From positions 62,001-126,000 of IMG/VR virus record IMGVR_UViG_3300044846_003114: DNA of 64,000 bases; one strand, 5' to 3'. How positions within the stretch are numbered: position 1 is the stretch's first letter; each line of letters starts with the position of its first letter. The stretch comes from a virus. The position numbers and the translations under genes were made by a program. The notes beneath the pieces were generated by a model. The model was given only the letters and a program-made list of their open reading frames with translations, made no database searches and had not been told where the DNA came from. Below are positions 34,861 to 63,898 of this stretch, one piece after another.

Positions 34861-35081
34861 GTGTAATACAAAATAAAAATTTAAACTTTTTTAATATAAC
34901 TTATCTATTATCCCAAATTAATTTTTTAATGACAAATAGTCATGTGAAATTTAACCATTTTGGGTGACAAGTTCTTATTTATTTGTGTATGGAAAAAAAT
35001 AATATAATCGATTCCAAACTTTCTTATATGGTTATTTTTCCGTATATTTTACAAAACAATAAATTCTTAAACAAAAAACGA

Positions 35082-38000
35082 ATGAAAAAAACAATTCTAA
35101 GTTTACTACTTTTATTAGTAGTAGGGGTTTCTGGGTTTGCTCAAGTAACAACCTCGACGATTTCCGGTATCGTAAAAACCGAAAAGGGTGAGACATTACC
35201 AGGTGCCACCGTTCAAGTAGTACACGTACCAACAGGAACAAAGTACGGAGCAAGTACAAATTTATCTGGTAAATATGTGGTTCCTGCAGTGAGAGTAGGT
35301 GGACCGTACAAAGTAATAGTATCATTTGTTGGTTTTAATCAAAACGAACAATCAGATGTTAATACTTCTCTTGGTGTTACAACAAACGTAGATGTTGTGT
35401 TAGTTGAGACTAGCACATCATTAAAAGAAGTTGTGGTAACAGGTGGAGGTAGAAATAGTACTTTCTCAAAAGAAAGAACTGGAGCATCACAACAATTCAG
35501 TAGACGAGAATTACAGTCAATTCCAATTACAGGTGCAAGAACAATCAATGGTATTACTAAGTACAATCCATTCGGTGATGGTTCTTCATTTGGGGCTCAG
35601 GATTCTCGATTGAACAATTTTACAATAGATGGTTCTCAATTCAACAACAATTTTGGTTTAGGTTCATCAGCACAAGCAGGTGGTAGAACAGGGGCTTCCG
35701 CCATATCGTTAGACGCGATTGAGCAATTGCAAGTGAACGTTGCACCATTTGACATTCGTCAAAGTGGATTCGTTGGTGCAGGTATTAATGCCGTAACAAG
35801 AAGTGGTTCGAATGAAATTGAAGGTTCGGTATACCAAACACAAAGAGATAATAGTTCTCGTTATGTTGGTGACAATGCAAGAGGTACAACTGTAACCGCA
35901 TCTAAATTTGATGAGAAGGTACAAGGGTTCCGATTAGGAGCACCAATCATTAAGAACAAATTGTTCATCTTTGGTAACTATGAATCAATTGATAGAACCG
36001 AACCAGGTACAACTTGGATTTCAACAGGTTCTCCATTGACGGGTTCACAAGTTAGTAGACCAACTTTCCAACAATTGACCGACCTTTCTAAATTTATGAA
36101 AGACAAGTTTAATTATGAAACAGGTCCGTTTGAGGGATATTCTAACACTAACACTTCCAATAAATTCTTGGTACGTTTAGATTGGAATATTAATGATAAA
36201 AATAAATTAACAACTCGTTATGTGTTCCATAATTCAGAAGCCCAAATTGGAATTTCAAATTCACAATCTGCGGGTTTTGGTAATAGAACCCAAAACATCA
36301 ACGCAATGTCTTTCCAAAATAGTGGATATACTATTCAGGATAACACACGTTCATTAGTAATGGAATTAAACTCAAAATTCTCAAACACTTTACATAATAA
36401 CTTAATTGTTTCATATGATAAACAAATTGAGAATAGAGGTTACATGTCTCAAATGTTCCCAACGATTGATATTAAAGAAGGTTCAACAACATTAACATCT
36501 GTTGGTTTCGATCCTTTCACTCCTGGTAACAAATTAGATTATAATACATTTAACATTACAAACAACTTAACAAAGTATATGGATAAACATACTTTAGTGG
36601 GTGGTTTCAACTTTCAAATGTATCAATCAAATAACTTATTCTTTCCAGCTTCTAATGGTGTTTACATCTTTAATAGTTTGGCAGATTTCTACAAAGCGAC
36701 AAATGAAAGTTTAGCAAATGGAGGTAAACCATCTGCGTTTGTACCTGCTCGTTTCCAATTCCGTTACTCGGCATTACCGGGAGCAATCGAACCAATGCAA
36801 ACTCTTAAATCCAATAGATTGGACTTGTATTTACAAGACGAATATAACGCAACTAAAGATTTAGTTTTAACATTTGGTGTTAGAGCAAATATTATTGGAT
36901 TTGACAATACCGCTTTGGAAAACCCAACAATCACCGCAATGACATTTGCAAATGGTGAGAAGTTTAATACGGGTACAATGCCAAAAACACAAGTCCTATT
37001 TGAACCTCGTTTAGGTTTCAATTGGGATGTTAAGGGTGAAAAGAAAACACAAGTACGTGGTGGAACAGGTGTATTCACAGGTCGTCCCCCATATGTATTC
37101 TTATCTAACCAAATTGGTAACAATGGTGTATTAACAGGATTTATTGATGTTAGTGGAGCGGCTGCGGCTCAATACGGATTCACTGCTGACCCTAACAAAT
37201 ATTTCATTCCTTCAACTCCAACATTACCTTCAACATTTGACTTAGCATTAACAGACCCTAACTACAAATTCCCACAAGTTTGGAAAACTAATTTGGCTGT
37301 TGACCAAAAATTACCATTCTTAGGATTAGTTGGTAGTGTTGAATATTTGTATAATAAAACAATCAATGCTGTTCATTATTATGAGGCTAATTTACAAAAT
37401 CCAGTGGGAACATTGGGTGGTGTAGATAACAGACCTCGTTTTGGTGGTACCGATGCAACCGTTAGAGTAAACAATAGTGTTTCGAGAGCTGCAGTCCTTA
37501 CAACTAAAGACGGTGCATATCACGAATCATTAACATTGAAATTAGAAAAACCAGTTCAAAAAGGATTTTGGGGTTCAGTTGCTTGGACAACGGCAAACTC
37601 AAAAGATTTTATGAGTGCAGGTTCAATTGCAAGTGGTTCTTGGCAATCAGCATTATCAGTTAATGGTAATAACGATTTAGGTTTATCATTTGCAGATGCG
37701 TTTGTTAAAAATAGATTTGTTGGTTTATTAGGATATAGAATTGAATACGGTAAAGGTTTAGGTGGAGCAACTACATTTACTTTAGGTTATGTGGGACAAC
37801 AATCTAATCCATTCTCATACATCGCAGCGGGTGACTTAAACGGTGATAGAGTAAACAACAACGATTTAATCTTCGTACCTAACAAAGGTTCAGATATCAA
37901 ATTTGCAAGTTTAACTGCTGGAGGTAAAACATTTACTGAAGCGGAACAACAATCAGCGTTCGACGCATTTATTGAACAAGATGAATACTTGTCAACTCGT

Positions 38001-38366
38001 AGAGGTCAATACGCAGAAAGAAATGGTGGATTATTACCATATCTACATAGACTTGATTTCTCAGTTGCACAAGATGTGTTTGTTAAAATCGGAGGTAAAA
38101 GAAACTCATTCCAAATTAGAATGGATATTCTTAACTTTACAAATATGTTGAATAATAATTGGGGAGTTTCTCAAAGAGCAACTGCACCTCAATTGTTAAA
38201 CTTTGTAAGCAGAGATGCTGTTACAAATGTTCCGACATATAGATTAGCAACTCAAAGATTGACAGATGGCTCTACTATTTTAGCTAGAGATTCTTATCAA
38301 TACAATTCATCAGTATTTGATGTATGGAGTGCTCAATTAGGTATCCGATATATCTTCGGTAGATAA
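35082..38366 (+). CDS. TonB-dependent receptor, Oar-like, full length
   Basis: 1,094 aa. Start at 35082 gives the signal peptide MKKTILSLLLLLVVGVSGFA-Q. Domains in order: carboxypeptidase-regulatory-like beta sandwich (about 22-110: TISGIVKTEKGETLPGATVQV, SGKYVVPAVRVGG), plug with the TonB-box region KEVVVTGGGR, and plug motifs NNFTIDGSQFNN and INAVTRSGSNEIEG, then a 22-strand-type barrel ending AQLGIRYIFGR. This is a Bacteroidota outer-membrane receptor of the Oar type. It is intact and flanked by phage-type genes. It may replace or mask a host receptor used by phages. A contig-join artefact is the main alternative. Confidence 0.93.
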   Translation: MKKTILSLLLLLVVGVSGFAQVTTSTISGIVKTEKGETLPGATVQVVHVPTGTKYGASTNLSGKYVVPAVRVGGPYKVIVSFVGFNQNEQSDVNTSLGVTTNVDVVLVETSTSLKEVVVTGGGRNSTFSKERTGASQQFSRRELQSIPITGARTINGITKYNPFGDGSSFGAQDSRLNNFTIDGSQFNNNFGLGSSAQAGGRTGASAISLDAIEQLQVNVAPFDIRQSGFVGAGINAVTRSGSNEIEGSVYQTQRDNSSRYVGDNARGTTVTASKFDEKVQGFRLGAPIIKNKLFIFGNYESIDRTEPGTTWISTGSPLTGSQVSRPTFQQLTDLSKFMKDKFNYETGPFEGYSNTNTSNKFLVRLDWNINDKNKLTTRYVFHNSEAQIGISNSQSAGFGNRTQNINAMSFQNSGYTIQDNTRSLVMELNSKFSNTLHNNLIVSYDKQIENRGYMSQMFPTIDIKEGSTTLTSVGFDPFTPGNKLDYNTFNITNNLTKYMDKHTLVGGFNFQMYQSNNLFFPASNGVYIFNSLADFYKATNESLANGGKPSAFVPARFQFRYSALPGAIEPMQTLKSNRLDLYLQDEYNATKDLVLTFGVRANIIGFDNTALENPTITAMTFANGEKFNTGTMPKTQVLFEPRLGFNWDVKGEKKTQVRGGTGVFTGRPPYVFLSNQIGNNGVLTGFIDVSGAAAAQYGFTADPNKYFIPSTPTLPSTFDLALTDPNYKFPQVWKTNLAVDQKLPFLGLVGSVEYLYNKTINAVHYYEANLQNPVGTLGGVDNRPRFGGTDATVRVNNSVSRAAVLTTKDGAYHESLTLKLEKPVQKGFWGSVAWTTANSKDFMSAGSIASGSWQSALSVNGNNDLGLSFADAFVKNRFVGLLGYRIEYGKGLGGATTFTLGYVGQQSNPFSYIAAGDLNGDRVNNNDLIFVPNKGSDIKFASLTAGGKTFTEAEQQSAFDAFIEQDEYLSTRRGQYAERNGGLLPYLHRLDFSVAQDVFVKIGGKRNSFQIRMDILNFTNMLNNNWGVSQRATAPQLLNFVSRDAVTNVPTYRLATQRLTDGSTILARDSYQYNSSVFDVWSAQLGIRYIFGR

Positions 38367-38435: not shown

Positions 38436-38987
38436 ATGAGCAAGATAATTAATTTTTTTGGTGGTCCGGGTATCGGTAAATCCACACAAGCATCTGGTTT
38501 ATTTACCGAGATGAAAAAACGCCACATGAGTGTTGAATATACATATGAGTTCCCAAAAGAGGTGGCTTGGGAAGGTAATATATCCCAATTAAGGGATCAG
38601 TTCTTTATAACTGCGAATCAACATAGAAACATTAGTCGTCTTTATGGTAAGGTTGATTATATAATTGTTGATTCACCGATTATTCTTGGTTGTTTTTATG
38701 AACAAAGATATGGTGATGGTTATCCAGCATCATTTTATGGGATGACAGGTTTAGGTGACTTTATATGGAAGTTGTTTAAACAATATGAAAATATAAACAT
38801 AATCTTAAAGAGAAATAATGAAACATATGACCCTAACGGTAGGATACAAGATTTACGAGAGGCTGAAGAAATTGATAAAGATATTAAACTCACATTGGAC
38901 ATTAATAATATACCTTATAGTGAATTTTCTGTTCATAATGACACTCCTTTGGAGATTTACAACTATTTAATAGAAAACAATTTATGA
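38436..38987 (+). CDS. AAA_28-type P-loop ATPase/kinase
   Basis: 183 aa. Walker A GGPGIGKST (9-17), YIIVDSPIILG as Walker B region, and RNNETYDPNGRIQDLREAEEID in the lid/substrate region, as in AAA_28 NadR-like nucleotide or nicotinamide-riboside kinases common in large phages. It may serve nucleotide or NAD salvage (NAD depletion is a frequent anti-phage defence), but substrate cannot be read from sequence. The stop overlaps the NUC1 gene start (ATGA). Confidence 0.87.
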   Translation: MSKIINFFGGPGIGKSTQASGLFTEMKKRHMSVEYTYEFPKEVAWEGNISQLRDQFFITANQHRNISRLYGKVDYIIVDSPIILGCFYEQRYGDGYPASFYGMTGLGDFIWKLFKQYENINIILKRNNETYDPNGRIQDLREAEEIDKDIKLTLDINNIPYSEFSVHNDTPLEIYNYLIENNL

Positions 38988-39586
38988 AAAAAGGTTTATT
39001 ATTAATCGTCTTTATTTTATTCAGTGTATCATTATTCGCACAAGATACCATAAGAGTTAAAAATCAAGTATTTGAGGTACTTTACTCCCAAAAATTAGAA
39101 TCACCTCTTTGGTTAAAATATCGTTCAATTAATAGACCAACAAATGTTAATAGAGGGTCTATGGACTTTTATACCGAAAAAAACATTAAAACTTCAGACG
39201 CTGAGGATTATAAGGCGAACATATATGATAAGGGTCATTTAGCTCCTGCAGCTTCTTTTTCTGATAATATGGAAAACCTTAAGCAAACATTTTCATATTT
39301 GAACTGTATGATGCAAGACCAGTATCAAAATAGAGGTGAGTGGAGATTGTTGGAAGAACAAGAAAGAAAATGGGACGATGTTGAACCATTAACTGTAATC
39401 ATTAAAGTATTTTTTGAAAATACACCCAAAAGAGTACCAACAAATGCAGCAATTCCATCACACATGCAAAAACACATATATTTTGAAAAACAAAAAAAGT
39501 GGAAATGCTTTGTTTTTTTAAATGAAAAGCCCAAATTTAAATGGGATGAACTTGAGATGGTGTGTCCACCGAGTGATCACAAGTAA
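38984..39586 (+). CDS. Secreted DNA/RNA non-specific endonuclease (NUC1 type)
   Basis: 200 aa. Signal peptide MKKGLLLIVFILFSVSLFA-Q, then the beta-beta-alpha-metal nuclease: YDKGHLAPAASFSDN (DRGH-type motif, catalytic His85) and MMQDQYQNRGEWRLLEE with metal-binding Asn116 and Glu124. Exported to periplasm or outside, where it could destroy incoming DNA of competing phages or scavenge nucleotides. Translationally coupled to the AAA_28 gene. Confidence 0.92.
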   Translation: MKKGLLLIVFILFSVSLFAQDTIRVKNQVFEVLYSQKLESPLWLKYRSINRPTNVNRGSMDFYTEKNIKTSDAEDYKANIYDKGHLAPAASFSDNMENLKQTFSYLNCMMQDQYQNRGEWRLLEEQERKWDDVEPLTVIIKVFFENTPKRVPTNAAIPSHMQKHIYFEKQKKWKCFVFLNEKPKFKWDELEMVCPPSDHK

Positions 39587-56574: not shown

Positions 56575-56984
56575 TGGTGGAGGTGACGGGACTCGAACCC
56601 GTGTCTTTCCTGTTCAACAATAAATGACTACACGTTTATTCTGTTAGTTCACAACAGACAAATATTTGGTTCCTATTTTGACATCGTTACCAACAACTGT
56701 GTCGAGTTCACTTTTGTTACGGTAGCCCTCTGAACGAGACCGTTTGTTTCTTTTTGGGTAGAAACCACACCTTGAGTACTTCTGTTCCTAGGTTATATGT
56801 ACGTCGACCCGATTGTAGTTTCGCCTTAGGCTACTGCTACGTTAGAAGTTGCAAGAATACCTGCTACTTCCATGTTGTTGTAAACGTTGCCGTCTAAAAT
56901 TTTCCACCGTAGATTTAAGTCATAGATGAAGTCTGACTACGTGCCACTTACCCCTGATACCTGAAATCAATGCCAGGCACCCCC
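56575..56984 (-). ncRNA. ssrA: tmRNA (transfer-messenger RNA)
   Basis: About 410 nt. The 5' end GGGGGUGCC...GAUUUCAGG pairs with the 3' acceptor CACCUCC-A-CCA, and GGUUCGAGUCCC is the T arm, so the alanine tRNA-like domain is complete with encoded CCA. The tag frame (56891 to 56826) starts at a GGC resume codon preceded by UAGAC: G-N-V-Y-N-N-M-E-V-A, then GILATSNVAVA and UAA, 21 residues, longer than usual and ending in a degradable AVA. It would rescue stalled ribosomes during infection. A host-type promoter is at 57004-57035. Confidence 0.93.
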
Positions 56985-57003
56985 ATATTTTAAAGAACTT
57001 ATA

Positions 57004-57035
57004 CAAATGTAGATGAAAAAGGGTTAAAAAACAAA
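57004..57035 (-). promoter_or_regulatory. Bacteroidota-type promoter of the tmRNA
   Basis: TTTG, 20 nt, TACATTTG on the minus strand, 20 nt upstream of the mature 5' end. Confidence 0.75.
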
Positions 57036-57413: not shown

Positions 57414-58097
57414 TCAGTTAACCCTTAAAGGGAAGTGTTTCTCATATAATGCCTCAAAAAACAACTTATTTTTTTCCCATTGTTTATTGGTCATACCAAT
57501 GGATTTGTGTGTTACCATTATTTTAGTAGTAACCCCAACTTTAATCCCATCTAAATGGTTGTCAACACAAAATGGTAAATCATAAAAATGAAACCCTGTA
57601 AATTCTTCATTAAACTTATGTTTAATTCTACCTTTATGAACCATAATGAACAATCCATCGACAATTACCACTTCTTTTGGTTTGTCACCAAATGATTGTT
57701 TTGAATAGTGATTTACATGTCTTTTACCTTCATGTTCATGACCCACAACACCATACATAGATTCCCTATCTTGCCACCACATTCCACTAATTAAGTTATC
57801 AGTTCCTGCTAATCCTAAAATTCCATATTCAGGATTTTCTTCAAATAATCTAACAACTTTTGGTGTAATGTTGGAGGTTTCTAAAATAAGATCATCATGC
57901 ATAAACACAACAATATCATGTTCAGAATCTTGTAATCCTATGTTATATATTTTGGGTAGAGAGTCCACACCATCATTCTCATAAATTAATATTTGAGTTT
58001 TAGGGTGTGAAAACATTTTCTCAACGTGTTTTAAATACGTATCATCTATTTTTCGTGTTGAAATGACAACACTAATTGGTCCATTATATTTCGACAT
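57414..58097 (-). CDS. GT2-like glycosyltransferase (PF13712 type), 227 aa
   Basis: Start at 58097 (MSKYNGPISVVISTRKID...). LIYENDGVDSLPKIYNIGLQDSEHDIVVFMHDDLIL (HDD metal motif), YGILGLAGTDNLISG.MWW and DGLFIMVHKGRI match the glycosyltransferase-like family PF13712. Overlaps the end of the phosphoesterase gene by 14 nt. May cooperate with the 42-50 kb cluster. Confidence 0.88.
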   Translation of the reverse strand: MSKYNGPISVVISTRKIDDTYLKHVEKMFSHPKTQILIYENDGVDSLPKIYNIGLQDSEHDIVVFMHDDLILETSNITPKVVRLFEENPEYGILGLAGTDNLISGMWWQDRESMYGVVGHEHEGKRHVNHYSKQSFGDKPKEVVIVDGLFIMVHKGRIKHKFNEEFTGFHFYDLPFCVDNHLDGIKVGVTTKIMVTHKSIGMTNKQWEKNKLFFEALYEKHFPLRVN

Positions 58098-58833
58098 GAG
58101 TTGCAATTATTTCACCATAAACTTCTTGTAAGTCTATGATTATTGGTTTATTTATTGGTTCGTATTTTGAGTTACAAGTTGATGCATTTACGAATAATGT
58201 TTTATTACCGAGCTCGACACCATAACCTTCGTGAATATGACCAAATACACTTACTAATGGATTTATTTCTTCTATTCTATTTCGTAACAACTCACAACCT
58301 ACGTTTGTATTTGGTTGTCGCCAATTATTAACTAAATCTCCGAATCCATTTGGTGGTCCGTGAGTAATTAATACATCTGTATCAGTTGGAATGTTATTCC
58401 ATTTTTCTAACAACTCCTCACCCATTCTTGGTAAGTTAAACGCCCAATCATAAAACCATGGTTGCCAAGGACTACCATAAAATTTAATGGGTCTTGAAAA
58501 TTTATCACTTTCAATTGTTATAAAACTATCCTCTAAATAAGTTACATCAGATTGAGATAAATTTTCGGGTGACATTAGATTATGTAACCAATCATAATCA
58601 CCTTTATGGTGAGGTTGATTAACTCTTTCAAAACAATGGTCATGATTACCTGATATGAATATTTTTTCATCGAATCCTTTAATGTTTTGAAACCAATGAA
58701 TAAATTCGGTAACATCCCTTTCTCCACCTCGATTAGAAATATCACCTGCATGTATTAGCACATCACCAGATGGTATTTCGTGGGACATACCTCCATGTAA
58801 ACTATGTGTGTCAGATATACAAACGATTCTCAT
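58084..58833 (-). CDS. Calcineurin-like metallophosphoesterase
   Basis: 249 aa. All metal motifs are present: CISDTHSLHGG (DxH), LIHAGDISNRGG (GDxx), FISGNHDHCF (GNHD), LITHGPPNGFGD and VFGHIHEGYG (GHxH). Cytoplasmic. Such phage enzymes can act on cyclic nucleotides, including defence signalling molecules, or on phosphate esters; the substrate is not readable. In an operon with the GT2-like gene. Confidence 0.92.
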   Translation of the reverse strand: MRIVCISDTHSLHGGMSHEIPSGDVLIHAGDISNRGGERDVTEFIHWFQNIKGFDEKIFISGNHDHCFERVNQPHHKGDYDWLHNLMSPENLSQSDVTYLEDSFITIESDKFSRPIKFYGSPWQPWFYDWAFNLPRMGEELLEKWNNIPTDTDVLITHGPPNGFGDLVNNWRQPNTNVGCELLRNRIEEINPLVSVFGHIHEGYGVELGNKTLFVNASTCNSKYEPINKPIIIDLQEVYGEIIATHVEI

Positions 58834-58866: not shown

Positions 58867-58894
58867 AAAAAAAAAGTCAGAATAAATCTGACTA
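58867..58894 (-). terminator. Terminator of the large structured RNA
   Basis: Minus strand GTCAGATTTATTCTGAC then nine T. Confidence 0.88.
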
Positions 58895-59800
58895 ATCTTT
58901 TTGGGCCGAACGGTTTTAAAACGTTCCAATTCCACCACTTTGTTTTACTAAACAAAGAAAAAAAAAACACTGAGAATACATGTTTTAACAATTGACTTAG
59001 GGACATTATTTGATTCTTCCCTTTTCCACTACCTTTTGAGTAGTACCAATCAGCGGCGGTCAATTAGATTAACCAATCCTTAAGTCGTTATATACTCTTT
59101 TAATACTCATTACTCATCAAAGATGCCTCCCTGATTCAACCTTGCGGGTTTAGAGAACTTTTTTAAAAATCACATTGGGCTTGAGACCCTTTGTGGCCGT
59201 GAACCCCTCACGACTATGTAGCCACCTGTCTACAACGACTGACGAACACTTTTTCTTGTTATGTTTAAGTTGTTAAACCGTAATTAACAAAATTTAGTTT
59301 CCGAATTTGGGAAAGTAGTGGTTCGTCGACCAGCCAAGCCACCTTTTGAGCGACTCGATACTAAACTACTCTCTGTAACATCCCTGCTACCATATTTTTG
59401 GACCCCTTCAAAACTAAACTCTTGGTAGAGTTTAATAAAGGATGATAACGACACCACTCGTACTTCACCATACCTTTCGGTTTTAAGATTCCCATCATAT
59501 TGAATCACGCAATTGTAAAGTTGGATAACGATACTTCTCACAATAACTCTATGGATTATTCTTATTGGTGTTCCCACCTCAACCAAACAACTCGGATTGC
59601 TTGGTCATCAAACCACTTTCCCTAAAGTGTTACCCTCAGTACTTAAGGTTCAACGATACTCCACTTGCCTACTCGAGTTCCATTTCTGAAACCGCAACTT
59701 ACCCCAACCAAGGGTTTGTCACTTTATCCCACTTTCATGGTTTATTTTGTTGACCATAGGCGGCCAATATTTTTAAATCAAAGAACTATTTTTTTGTTTC
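58867..59800 (-). ncRNA. Large structured RNA, about 0.93 kb (GOLLD/ROOL-like candidate)
   Basis: No credible coding frame, but a consensus promoter (59806-59836) and an intrinsic terminator (58867-58894) define one transcript. Many local hairpins are visible on the minus strand: CCAAGCAA-tccgag-TTGTTTGG, GGTG-ggaa-CACC, AAACTC-taccaa-GAGTTT, GTGA-gggg-TTCAC, GAACG-ttttaaaac-CGTTC. Size, richness in structure, and location between tmRNA and tRNA genes in a phage are those of the GOLLD and ROOL ornate large RNAs. I cannot confirm the family without a covariance model. Confidence 0.72.
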
Positions 59801-59805
59801 TTTTA

Positions 59806-59836
59806 CAAAGATAAGAAAACTTTTTTAAAAAACAAA
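59806..59836 (-). promoter_or_regulatory. Consensus Bacteroidota-type promoter of the large RNA
   Basis: Minus strand TTTG, 19 nt exactly, TATCTTTG. Confidence 0.85.
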
Positions 59837-61067: not shown

Positions 61068-61260
61068 AAATAACACCCTTTTATCAGCCGAAGCCTCACA
61101 TAACCTTAGTGTGGAACCACCGGTAGGTGTCATGAATGATTACCATTGAGAATGTAGATTTTCACTAACTCGATTTAGCGGTCTCTTTGATAATTTTTTG
61201 ATGGATGAAAAACATCTATTTTTCTTGTGGATTTCCATCGGAATCCCATAACTTAAAAGT
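61068..61260. other. Gene-free stretch between tRNAs
   Basis: Contains hairpins such as CACACTAAGG-tta-TGTG and GGC-ttcg-GCC-type loops on the minus strand, but no recognisable tRNA or coding frame. May be spacer transcript of the tRNA operon. Confidence 0.4.
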
Positions 61261-61333
61261 GGACCAGATAGGAATCGAACCTATTACCTTCACATTATGA
61301 GTGTGCCGCTCTAACCGAGTGAGCTACAAGTCC
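61261..61333 (-). tRNA. tRNA with CAT anticodon (Met or Ile2)
   Basis: Acceptor GGACTTG...CTGGTCC (one mismatch), D arm GCTC/GAGC, anticodon loop CTCATAA (CAT at plus 61297-61299), T arm ATAGG-TTCGATT-CCTAT. No encoded CCA. Confidence 0.92.
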
Positions 61334-61343
61334 AAAATTCACG

Positions 61344-61417
61344 TGATCCCGTTTGGATTCGAACCAAAGACCCACATCTTAGAAGGATGTTGCTCTATCC
61401 AACTGAGCTACGGAACC
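61344..61417 (-). tRNA. tRNA-Arg (TCT)
   Basis: Acceptor GGTTCCG/CGGGATC, D arm GCTC-agttggata-GAGC, anticodon arm ACATC-CTTCTAA-GATGT, T loop TTCGAAT. Reads AGA/AGG, codons used heavily in these AT-rich genes. Confidence 0.94.
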
Positions 61418-61538
61418 AAAGTAATGTAATGTCTGTACGGTTTGTATCTAATCAGCACCTTTGTACATGCTTCAAAAGTTTCCATTTCATACGTAGCGTC
61501 CGTTCCGTCACTCATTTCTGAGTCATTACACTAAAATT
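61418..61538. other. Spacer with hairpin, no gene
   Basis: Includes minus-strand ACTCA-gaa-ATGAGT and a GACGGAACGGACG direct repeat. Not recognised as tRNA. Confidence 0.35.
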
Positions 61539-61973
61539 TTATTTAATGTTTTTTGCACGATATGTATCTGTTTGTGAATGACAATTTGGACATAACATTC
61601 TCAAGTTTTCTAACTTATGATTTGTTCGATTTCCATCAATATGGTCTAATTCCATATTTATTTTTTTACCATTCCATTCTTCAATGTCACATACTGAACA
61701 TTTATTTTCAATTATTTTTTCTTTTAATAATCTGTTTTTTAATTTGAATGTTTGAAAATGAGGGTGTTTACCATCCAATATTTCCTGTAAATCAATTTTA
61801 GGTGGGACAATTTTATTTATTCCTTTCCCCGATTGATTTGTGTTGTAACAATCAAATTTAATTGCATACTTTTTAAAAGTATTAAAATGTAATTCTAATT
61901 TAACTGCGGCATCTGCCATAGAATTAGAATTTTGACACATTTCTCTAAAATGTTTTTCATCTATTTGTTTCAT
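61539..61973 (-). CDS. HNH endonuclease with N-terminal HTH
   Basis: 144 aa. N-terminal MADAAVKLELHFNTFKKYAIKFDC is a helix-turn-helix; the C-terminus is HNH: NKCSVCDIEEWNGKKINMELDHIDGNRTNHKLENLRMLCPNCHSQTDTY (two CxxC, catalytic His of LDHIDGN). It sits among tRNA genes, a classic site for homing nucleases. Confidence 0.93.
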   Translation of the reverse strand: MKQIDEKHFREMCQNSNSMADAAVKLELHFNTFKKYAIKFDCYNTNQSGKGINKIVPPKIDLQEILDGKHPHFQTFKLKNRLLKEKIIENKCSVCDIEEWNGKKINMELDHIDGNRTNHKLENLRMLCPNCHSQTDTYRAKNIK

Positions 61974-62026
61974 ATTAATAAATATCAGACAAATATGAAA
62001 AACACTCCGAAGTGTCTATTTTTTTG

Positions 62027-62111
62027 TACTTCCGACCAGAATCGAACTGGTACGAACTTTCAGTTCATAGCATTTTAAGTGCTACGTGTCTACCAATTCC
62101 ACCACGGAAGC
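62027..62111 (-). tRNA. tRNA-Leu (TAA)
   Basis: Class II: acceptor GCTTCCG/CGGAAGT, D arm GTG-gaattggtaga-CAC, anticodon arm TAGCA-CTTAAAA-TGCTA, long variable arm GAACTGAAAGTTC, T loop TTCGATT. Confidence 0.94.
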
Positions 62112-62171
62112 ATTTTGTTTTTCCAATACATCAAAGAACCATAATTCAAATATAATAAAAAAAAATGATAT

Positions 62172-62211
62172 AAAAAAACCCCGAACAATTTTTTTAGTTT
62201 GTTCAGGGTTC
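62172..62211 (-). terminator. Intrinsic terminator
   Basis: Minus strand AACCCTGAACAAAC-taaaaaaa-TTGTTCGGGGTT then seven T; ends the barrel-protein unit. Confidence 0.88.
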
Positions 62212-62229
62212 TAACTTAACTAAAAATTT

Positions 62230-62679
62230 TTATTTTACTTTATATGATAACCCAAGTCCTAATGTAAAATCACTACCAACTAAATTACCAATTGTCCATA
62301 AATTTATAACAGTACTTGGTCTTAGTGGATTATACATTATAAGAAAATTTGGTTTGTTACCATTAAGTGTCGGTTGTAATCCAAATCCAACAATGGCCTT
62401 GTCTTCTTTTACTTGTCTAAGAACACCGAACTTCATATTATCAGATAGATTTCCTGTGTTGGTATTGACACCAGGAGGAATTGATATACCTCCATTTGGG
62501 GTTTTCAATTCACCGTATGGAAGACCTGCATAAAATCCCCAACCTTTTTTCATAAAACCACCCGTTATATAACCATCTGATGGACCACCTTTTCGAGTGG
62601 CGGTTATAAACCACTCTTGTCCATTTGCTACGACTTCTACTCCCAAAAGTAACGTTAGCACTAAAAAAATTTTTTTCAT
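62230..62679 (-). CDS. Secreted outer-membrane-like beta protein, 149 aa
   Basis: ATG at 62679 gives the signal peptide MKKIFLVLTLLLGVEVVANG, with mature start near QEW. The mature part has alternating beta strands (EWFITATRKGG, GWGFYAGLPYG, KAIVGFGLQPTL, VGSDFTLGLGLSYKVK) ending in an aromatic/charged strand typical of small barrels. ATGA overlap with the upstream gene. Likely an envelope protein of the phage moron type. Confidence 0.82.
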   Translation of the reverse strand: MKKIFLVLTLLLGVEVVANGQEWFITATRKGGPSDGYITGGFMKKGWGFYAGLPYGELKTPNGGISIPPGVNTNTGNLSDNMKFGVLRQVKEDKAIVGFGLQPTLNGNKPNFLIMYNPLRPSTVINLWTIGNLVGSDFTLGLGLSYKVK

Positions 62680-62978
62680 TTTTTTGATTTGGACAAGGAG
62701 TCTTCCGTTGCCCATTTTTCTTTTAACTTTGCTACCTTCTCAATCTTTACAATTTTACCATTTAATTTGGTAATCTCGTCCGCGATTTCTTTGGTTTTGA
62801 CGGCCCTGCTAGCGAAATTCTCATCTGTTACTTCAACCCATTCAATCTTCCTTTCAAGAGATTTAATCTCTTTTTTTATTTGATTGACTGACTTTCTTTC
62901 GTCTGAAAGACTTGGGTCGATAGATGATGTTAATGTATTAAAAAATAACATTAACGATAGTGTGATTTTATCTATCAT
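62676..62978 (-). CDS. Signal-anchored coiled-coil protein, 100 aa
   Basis: MIDKITLSLMLFFNTLTSSI: hydrophobic N-terminus (signal or anchor) followed by a coiled coil (QIKKEIKSLERKIEWVEV ... ADEITKLNGKIVKIEKVAKLK) and a basic end. Exported or membrane-anchored, co-expressed with the barrel-like protein. TATTTATA lies 4 nt before its start. Confidence 0.8.
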   Translation of the reverse strand: MIDKITLSLMLFFNTLTSSIDPSLSDERKSVNQIKKEIKSLERKIEWVEVTDENFASRAVKTKEIADEITKLNGKIVKIEKVAKLKEKWATEDSLSKSKK

Positions 62979-62982
62979 ATAT

Positions 62983-62990
62983 TATAAATA
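62983..62990 (-). promoter_or_regulatory. TATTTATA late-promoter candidate
   Basis: Minus strand, exactly 4 nt before the ATG at 62978. Confidence 0.6.
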
Positions 62991-63056
62991 TTAATAATAT
63001 GATAAATATACAGAATAAAATATTGGAAATCAATATCTTAATATAAAAAAATATTG

Positions 63057-63128
63057 TACCCCCGACGGGATTCGAACCCGTATTACATCCGTGAAAGGGA
63101 TGTGACCTAACCCTTAGTCGACAGGGGC
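63057..63128 (-). tRNA. tRNA-Glu (TTC)
   Basis: Acceptor GCCCCTG/CGGGGGT, anticodon arm CATCC-CTTTCAC-GGATG, T arm ACGGG-TTCGAAT-CCCGT. Confidence 0.93.
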
Positions 63129-63224
63129 AAATAGGAACTAACATTGCTATCAGGGTTTAAATGGTTCACAGATAAATCTGGAATCACCACCTACTGGTTT
63201 TACAGTATCTTAGTTAATTCTTTG

Positions 63225-63310
63225 CGGAAGGAGTAGGATTCGAACCCACGGTACCTTTCAGTACTTCGGTTTTCAAGACCGACGCGATAGACCAACTCTG
63301 CCATCCTTCC
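63225..63310 (-). tRNA. tRNA-Ser (TGA)
   Basis: Class II: acceptor GGAAGGA/TCCTTCC, anticodon arm TCGGT-CTTGAAA-ACCGA, variable arm GTACTGAAAGGTAC, discriminator G as expected for Ser. Confidence 0.94.
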
Positions 63311-63318
63311 AATATTTG

Positions 63319-63392
63319 CGGACTGTACGGGACTCGAACCCGTGAACTCCACCGTGACAGGGTGGCATGATAACCAACTTCACCAACAATCC
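63319..63392 (-). tRNA. tRNA-Asp (GTC)
   Basis: Acceptor GGATTGT/ACAGTCC, discriminator G, anticodon arm CCACC-CTGTCAC-GGTGG, T arm ACGGG-TTCGAGT-CCCGT. Confidence 0.93.
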
Positions 63393-63400
63393 AATATTCT

Positions 63401-63781
63401 TTAATACTTTACGTAATCTTTTACCTCCCTAATTTCTGAATTAGTAACCATATTAATTTCATTCTTCAACCTAAACCTTTCGTCGTTTGTAAAATATACT
63501 TTTCTAGCTAATTCAATAAAATCATCATTGAATTTTTTTTCTTTTTCCATAACTCTTAAATTATCTTCAATATCCCACAAGTTTGTGTTGACTAAAATTA
63601 GTTTATCATAAATTAATTCTACTTCAGGGTTATTAAAATAACTCAAAGAAAAGTTATATAGTAATTCAAATTCTTTATTGATTAAAATTAACTTTTCCTC
63701 ATCAAGTACTTTTGTTTTTTTAACTTGAAGAATTGAAAGTTTATCAATCATTTCTCCAATACTAACAGGAATCGATATCAT
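63401..63781 (-). CDS. DUF6165 family protein
   Basis: 126 aa. SIPVSIGEMIDKLSILQVKK, LVNTNLWDIEDNLRVMEKEKKFNDDFIELARKVYFTNDERFRLKNEIN, SEIREVKDYVKY follow the DUF6165 pattern throughout; full length. The family often neighbours glycan or glycosyltransferase genes; function not established. Lies within the tRNA cluster. Confidence 0.9.
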   Translation of the reverse strand: MISIPVSIGEMIDKLSILQVKKTKVLDEEKLILINKEFELLYNFSLSYFNNPEVELIYDKLILVNTNLWDIEDNLRVMEKEKKFNDDFIELARKVYFTNDERFRLKNEINMVTNSEIREVKDYVKY

Positions 63782-63825
63782 ACTTATTTTGTTATTATAA
63801 GATTTTTCTTAGTTGTCACTTGTTG

Positions 63826-63898
63826 AGCCCAAAGTCAGACTCGAACTGACGACCTGCTGATTACAAATCAGCTGCTCTACCAACTGAGCTATTCGGGC
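63826..63898 (-). tRNA. tRNA-Thr (TGT)
   Basis: Acceptor GCCCGAA/TTTGGGC, D arm GCTC-agttggta-GAGC, anticodon arm GCTGA-TTTGTAA-TCAGC, T arm GTCAG-TTCGAGT-CTGAC. Confidence 0.94.

What the first reader, a model, noticed from the sequence alone, without database searches (positions are those of the whole stretch)
58867..59836. Promoter-to-terminator 0.93-kb structured RNA between tmRNA and tRNAs
A perfect host promoter and a strong terminator bracket a gene-free region full of hairpins. Ornate large RNAs GOLLD and ROOL occur in phages and often next to tRNA genes; this could be one of them in a Bacteroidota phage, or a new class. A small basic SH3-like protein gene lies just upstream.
Basis: partly seen in the sequence, partly recalled or inferred. 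Interest (0 to 1): 0.78.

Follow-up and report, generated by a model that had tools for sequence, protein, structure and literature searches.

The report
GOLLD cage RNA in Bacteroidota phage
The gene-free stretch encodes GOLLD, a known giant phage RNA of unknown job that builds hollow RNA cages; in this group of freshwater Bacteroidota phages it starts with a signal resembling the host's ribosomal-RNA antitermination tag and nearly always sits beside the phage's own ribosome-rescue RNA (tmRNA), which gives its function a testable lead.

Summary
The full Rfam model matches at 58967-59373 with 308 bits (cut-off 150). The transcript runs from a Bacteroidota promoter (59806-59836) to a terminator (58867-58893) and includes the ~400-nt 5' domain that the Rfam model omits. 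In 31 full-length relatives, 133 of 200 predicted pairs change on both sides. A pseudoknot-like helix, not described in the main text I could read, joins the 5' domain to the start of the linker (124/124 cells paired, six sequence states). So this is a new member of a known family.

Three context features look new: (1) all 31 distinct leaders carry GTTCTTT[G/A]A soon after the promoter (0.07 expected), matching boxA-like motifs in some Bacteroidota 16S rRNA leaders and also preceding the phage's tmRNA and tRNA-Leu; (2) 28 of 29 GOLLD-bearing phage records carry a tmRNA, always 0.1-3.8 kb 3' of GOLLD, against 7 of 23 GOLLD-lacking comparison records; a roseophage shows the same pairing; (3) GOLLD occurs in phages up to 336 kb, and in two ~640-kb huge-phage records.

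Cage assembly is inferred from conserved contacts. The function, perhaps translation support, remains a hypothesis.

The parts
59806..59836 (-). Bacteroidota-type promoter TTTG-N19-TATCTTTG (start site about 59800, inferred)
   Evidence: a TAnnTTTG box lies 437-620 nt upstream of the 3' domain in 45 of 47 related loci
59778..59786 (-). boxA-like leader motif GTTCTTTGA, 19 nt after the -10 box
   Evidence: 31/31 distinct leaders against 0.07 in shuffles
59374..59767 (-). GOLLD 5' (cap) domain, not part of the Rfam model
   Evidence: alignment A1 and fold; CM R1 match 59502-59666
58967..59373 (-). GOLLD conserved 3' (ring) domain, RF02032 positions 1-416
   Evidence: 308 bits, E 3e-87; alignment
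59592..59595 (-). K1 5' side: hairpin loop CCGA of the 5' domain
   Evidence: pairs with 59301-59304 in 31/31 sequences, six sequence states
59301..59304 (-). K1 3' side: UCGG at the start of the linker
   Evidence: coordinates
59255..59300 (-). variable A/U-rich linker (disordered, inside the cage, in the env-38 structure)
   Evidence: alignment A1 columns 844-901; PMC12286853
59322..59327 (-). K3 5' side: joining-region GACGAA
   Evidence: covaries with 59241-59246
59241..59246 (-). K3 3' side: UUCGUC
59138..59150 (-). hairpin assigned to L21a, loop CGCAA with a self-complementary GC (half-shell kissing loop B8)
   Evidence: GC in most, AU in L177, CG in L168; assignment by analogy to PMC12286853
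58938..58957 (-). clade-specific 3' extension hairpin
   Evidence: stem kept through sequence changes in 13 relatives
58867..58893 (-). intrinsic terminator (7-bp stem, T9)
56575..56984 (-). phage tmRNA, 1983 nt downstream of the GOLLD 3' end
   Evidence: ARAGORN, RF00023 82.7 bits; linkage
56990..56998 (-). boxA-like GTTCTTTAA ahead of the tmRNA, behind promoter 57004-57035
   Evidence: same motif 14-15 nt ahead of 20 of 28 tmRNAs of GOLLD-bearing phages
62131..62139 (-). boxA-like GTTCTTTGA ahead of tRNA-Leu
58084..58833 (-). metallophosphoesterase gene directly downstream of GOLLD, conserved neighbour in this clade
   Evidence: PF00149

Best explanation
The locus is a GOLLD RNA gene of a large Bacteroidota-infecting phage. 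Shown by sequence: a host-consensus promoter, a leader with a boxA-like motif, a conserved 5' domain, the GOLLD 3' domain, and a terminator. Inferred: host RNA polymerase transcribes it; boxA recruits NusB/S10-type antitermination factors so that the long untranslated RNA is finished and protected from Rho; the RNA folds into two domains tied by helix K1 and assembles, like env-38 GOLLD, into a closed cage through conserved kissing loops. Hypothesis (about 0.35): the cage serves phage translation, for example by holding, protecting or delivering phage tRNAs, the phage tmRNA or ribosome-bound RNAs, because it is kept in a stable-RNA block with tRNA genes and the tmRNA.
For: RF02032 308 bits over the full model. 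Covariation over both domains: 133/200 pairs two-sided, covariation score 0.576 against 0.234 shuffled and at most 0.13 slid. K1: 124/124 cells paired, slid 20-57%, also present in two ~640-kb phages. Long-range pairs at positions compatible with known GOLLD contacts. Promoter in 45/47 loci and boxA-like motif in 31/31 leaders against 0.07 expected; the same motif ahead of phage tmRNA and tRNA-Leu but at none of the other 29 full-consensus promoters of the record; GTTCTTTGA/GTTCTTTAA/GTTCATTGA 131-163 nt ahead of 16S rRNA in four Bacteroidota genomes. tmRNA in 28/29 GOLLD-bearing records, always 3' of GOLLD, 123-3811 nt, in both orientations, against 7/23 GOLLD-lacking records. tRNA or tmRNA within about 10-85 nt 3' of GOLLD in several phages. 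Ribosomes reported in GOLLD pull-downs (PMC12286853).
Against: No expression, assembly or Nus-binding data. boxA-like motif not found in the 16S leaders of Flagellimonas, Emticicia and Lacihabitans loci with the pattern used. tmRNA linkage is not universal: Acinetobacter, Mycobacterium, Streptococcus and both ~640-kb phages lack a canonical tmRNA. The records are related and partly redundant (effective number about 23 at 90% identity), and the GOLLD-lacking comparison set is not matched by phylogeny. Clustering of stable-RNA genes could explain the linkage without shared function.
Confidence: 0.85

Rival explanations
1. GOLLD is genuine but its nearness to the tmRNA and tRNAs only reflects a stable-RNA gene island kept together by modular exchange or shared descent; the RNA's job is unrelated to translation (for example capsid, packaging or host takeover).
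For: Stable RNAs of large phages often cluster; several GOLLD phages lack tmRNA; the linked records share ancestry.
Against: The tmRNA is always on the 3' side, 28/28, although strand and gap differ, and the pairing recurs in a roseophage with a different tmRNA type.
Confidence: 0.45
2. GTTCTTTGA is not an antitermination boxA but a structural element of GOLLD or an initiation-region element of phage stable-RNA promoters.
For: In tmRNA leaders the motif sits at a fixed 14-15 nt from the mature end; not all host 16S leaders show it; Nus binding is untested.
Against: In GOLLD leaders its distance to the promoter (18-137 nt) and to the first stem varies while the sequence does not; it is shared by three different RNA units; it matches host 16S leader motifs.
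Confidence: 0.25
3. The RNA folds as GOLLD but does not form a 14-mer cage in the cell (monomer, other stoichiometry, or protein-bound).
For: Only env-38 has been solved as a 14-mer; nothing was measured here.
Against: Loops assigned to intermolecular bridges keep complementarity or self-complementarity through changes, and the 5' domain is of matching size, about 427 nt from the predicted start against 420.
Confidence: 0.12
4. The region is an unstructured or protein-coding spacer and the hairpins are chance.
For: Short ORFs exist in the region.
Against: Rfam match at 308 bits, covariation, ORFs broken in most relatives.
Confidence: 0.01

Closest known systems
GOLLD RNA, Rfam RF02032; env-38 14-mer nanocage (PMC12286853)
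   Same: Full 3' domain model match; about 420-nt 5' domain; variable linker; covarying long-range contacts compatible with the described B7 and B8 bridges and the J24/26-L27 contact; phage-borne, near tRNAs.
   Different: Bacteroidota host promoter and boxA-like leader; tmRNA neighbour; clade-specific 3' hairpin module instead of a direct 3' tRNA; helix K1 between 5' domain and linker start is not described in the main text I could read.
ROOL RNA
   Same: Large phage RNA near tRNA genes that forms a hollow RNA cage (8-mer).
   Different: No ROOL match here even at E<=1; unrelated sequence and fold according to PMC12286853.
GOLLD of the ~640-kb uncultured phages LR745206.1 and LR756502.1
   Same: Same 5' domain type (CM R1 139 and 123 bits), same K1 helix; LR745206.1 also has GTTCTTTGA upstream.
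   Different: No canonical tmRNA in those records.
rRNA boxA / Nus antitermination signal (reviewed in PMC10250234)
   Same: Same short sequence class, placed in the leader of a long untranslated RNA; matching motif in some Bacteroidota 16S leaders.
   Different: No boxB or boxC searched for or shown; factor binding untested; here in phage RNAs.

Membership tests
GOLLD (RF02032) | Covariance-model score above the curated cut-off over the full model | tested here: met
   308 bits against 150, positions 1-416
GOLLD (RF02032) | Conserved 3' domain preceded by a less conserved, structured 5' domain of about 420 nt | tested here: met
   5' domain of about 400-430 nt with 22 covarying helices across both domains' 5' half
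GOLLD (RF02032) | Base pairs supported by covariation in homologues | tested here: met
   133/200 pairs with two-sided change, controls far lower
GOLLD (RF02032) | Phage or prophage location, often near tRNA genes | tested here: met
   virus record, tRNA array 61259-63898
GOLLD (RF02032) | Intermolecular bridges B7 and B8 conserved | tested here: inconclusive
   Loops at matching positions covary or keep self-complementarity, but helix numbering was assigned by analogy, without the env-38 sequence
GOLLD (RF02032) | Assembly into a closed 14-mer cage | not testable with these tools
   needs biochemistry or cryo-EM
ROOL | Match to the Rfam model | tested here: not met
   no match at gathering or at E<=1
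boxA antitermination signal | boxA-class sequence in the transcript leader | tested here: met
   GTTCTTT[GA]A in 31/31 distinct leaders against 0.07 expected
boxA antitermination signal | Same motif in host rRNA leaders | tested here: inconclusive
   exact or one mismatch in 4 of 8 Bacteroidota 16S leaders inspected
boxA antitermination signal | NusB/S10 binding and resistance to termination | not testable with these tools
   needs biochemistry

The most novel reading that the evidence does not exclude
In these phages GOLLD cages belong to a translation-support module: made under rRNA-style boxA antitermination, genetically tied to a phage tmRNA and tRNAs, and working on or with tmRNA, tRNA or ribosomes during infection.
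Probability: 0.25. Interest if true: 0.85.

Novelty: new member of a known kind. Interest (0 to 1): 0.55.

Why it matters
GOLLD is one of the largest structured RNA classes and its function is unknown. This work gives it a host group (freshwater Bacteroidota phages, including jumbo phages), a full-length 5' domain with strong covariation, a new long-range helix to test in cage assembly, a candidate mode of transcription (rRNA-type boxA), and a near-constant genetic partner (tmRNA). Each turns an open question about these RNAs into a concrete experiment.

Tried and rejected
ROOL and every other Rfam family at E<=1: nothing credible besides GOLLD. Protein coding: ORFs not conserved. SH3 assignment of the upstream ORF: no Pfam match. 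Close relatives in sequenced phages: none beyond a 70% match to LR745206.1. GOLLD in prokaryote genomes: no hit with the DNA pattern and none in 148 Bacteroidota genomes, but that second search found nothing anywhere, so it does not prove absence; a 400-genome attempt failed. Idea that the phage tmRNA leader with boxA was copied from host ssrA: the motif sits close to the start in only 1 of 16 host leaders. Universal tmRNA linkage: rejected. The 5' domain model did not find the Acinetobacter, Mycobacterium, Streptococcus or roseophage 5' regions. Phage taxonomy: PHROGs matches to ten large proteins gave tail fibre, thymidylate synthase and polymerase exonuclease but no terminase or capsid. The Weinberg 2009 and 2017 papers were not held, so I could not check whether K1 or the tmRNA neighbourhood was noted there.

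Full report
What is there. The window is bases 62001-126000 of a 131,212-base linear virus record. On its minus strand, a Bacteroidota promoter TTTG-N19-TATCTTTG (59806-59836; 9 such sites in the window against 1.0 expected) is followed by a gene-free stretch ending in a 7-bp terminator hairpin with T9 (58867-58893). Rfam GOLLD (RF02032) matches 58967-59373 over its full length with 308 bits, E 3e-87, cut-off 150; at E<=1 only two weak, sub-threshold matches remain beside it.

The 5' domain. The Rfam model covers only the 3' domain. I searched IMG/VR with a pattern from the conserved 3' domain (57 loci) and with the neighbouring metallophosphoesterase (75 loci); 44 of 47 and 17 of 48 records carried GOLLD above cut-off. 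In 45 of 47 of these loci a TAnnTTTG promoter box lies 437-620 nt upstream of the 3' domain, and the sequence between is conserved at 66% identity or more in 38 distinct sequences. Neither the promoter nor the 5' domain was used to select the loci.

Covariation. In 31 full-length sequences (alignment A1), RNAalifold gives 200 pairs; 98.0% of cells pair, 133 pairs change on both sides, and the covariation score is 0.576 against 0.234 shuffled and at most 0.13 when slid. Structure and control come from the same alignment, which favours the structure on cells paired, but the two-sided changes in 133 pairs are not explained by that.

Long-range contacts. A covariation scan shows pairs outside the nested structure. 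K1 joins a 5'-domain hairpin loop (59592-59595, CCGA) to the linker start (59301-59304, UCGG): 124 of 124 cells paired, all four pairs changed on both sides, six states (CCGA:UCGG, GCAG:CUGC, ACCG:CGGU, GCGG:CCGC, GUGG:CCAC, GUAG:CUAC); slid versions reach 20-57%. It was found by scanning the same alignment, but it also holds in two ~640-kb phages outside it. K3 joins 59322-59327 to 59241-59246. Single covarying pairs lie where the paper places L20-J13/15 (B7) and J24/26-L27 contacts, and the loop I assign to L21a keeps a self-complementary dinucleotide as GC, AU or CG. These assignments are by analogy, since I did not have the env-38 sequence. K1 is not described in the main text of PMC12286853 that I read; its supplement and the original 2009 paper were not available, so I do not claim that it is unreported.

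boxA-like leader. GTTCTTT[G/A]A follows the -10 box in all 31 distinct leaders, against 0.07 in dinucleotide shuffles, at 18-137 nt. In the window's phage it also lies ahead of the tmRNA and tRNA-Leu, but of 31 full-consensus promoters only those of GOLLD and tmRNA have it within 60 nt. The same or a one-mismatch motif lies 131-163 nt ahead of 16S rRNA in four of eight Bacteroidota leaders inspected. In E. coli boxA is the key element for forming the rRNA antitermination complex (PMC10250234). Reading it as boxA is an inference.

tmRNA linkage. Of 29 GOLLD-bearing phage records, 28 have a tmRNA above cut-off, always 3' of GOLLD at 123-3811 nt, 16 on the opposite strand and 12 on the same. Of 23 GOLLD-lacking records with a related metallophosphoesterase, 7 have one. 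The records are related and some near-identical, and the comparison set is not matched for phylogeny, so this is a strong pattern rather than a corrected statistic. In the roseophage DSS3_MAL1 an alphaproteobacterial permuted tmRNA begins 58-84 nt after the GOLLD 3' end. Five other GOLLD phages of different hosts lack a canonical tmRNA, so the pairing is not general. No paper in the library containing both words describes it in the passages I read, and the structural paper does not mention tmRNA.

How it probably works. The host polymerase transcribes a long untranslated RNA; boxA may keep it from terminating early; the RNA folds into two domains tied by K1 and assembles into a cage. The steps after transcription rest on the published env-38 structure plus conserved contacts. 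For the function I favour, at about 0.35, a role in phage translation, from the linkage to tRNA and tmRNA genes and the ribosome pull-down cited in PMC12286853; about 0.45 goes to a linkage without functional meaning.

Verdict. A confirmed, well-supported new member of GOLLD. The novelty lies in its context and in evidence that can guide experiments, not in a new RNA class.

Noticed in passing
window 56575-56984 (-) and L287, L291, L300, L309: ARAGORN predicts unusually long tag peptides of 20-22 aa ending in VAVA or VAA for the phage tmRNAs (e.g. GNVYNNMEVAGILATSNVAVA), against 8-10 aa ending in ALAA, AMAA or QLAA in most Bacteroidota host tmRNAs checked. Could change the fate of tagged proteins.
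   Followed up: partly
window 34983-38366 (+): Phage-borne 1127-aa outer-membrane TonB-type beta-barrel protein (OMP_b-brl_4, CarboxypepD_reg), about 70% identical to Sediminibacterium-type genomes: probably a recent host gene.
   Followed up: partly
window 17589, 18950, 22692, 24117, 24760, 27501, 28603, 31369, 55773: Many unrelated proteins start with similar short N-termini (MKLLDxxFExV or MKxIxxTExQ type), resembling a shared targeting or head-maturation tag.
   Followed up: no
L145, L155, L159, L163, L316, L317, L320: A tRNA gene starts about 10-20 nt after the GOLLD 3' end, so RNase P cleavage could define the mature GOLLD 3' end there; the window's clade has a hairpin module instead.
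   Followed up: partly
LR745206.1 (634,780 bp) and LR756502.1 (642,428 bp): Unannotated GOLLD RNAs of 287 and 275 bits in two of the largest phage records.
   Followed up: partly
window 38984-39586 (+): DNA/RNA non-specific endonuclease (PF01223) encoded near the outer-membrane protein gene.
   Followed up: no
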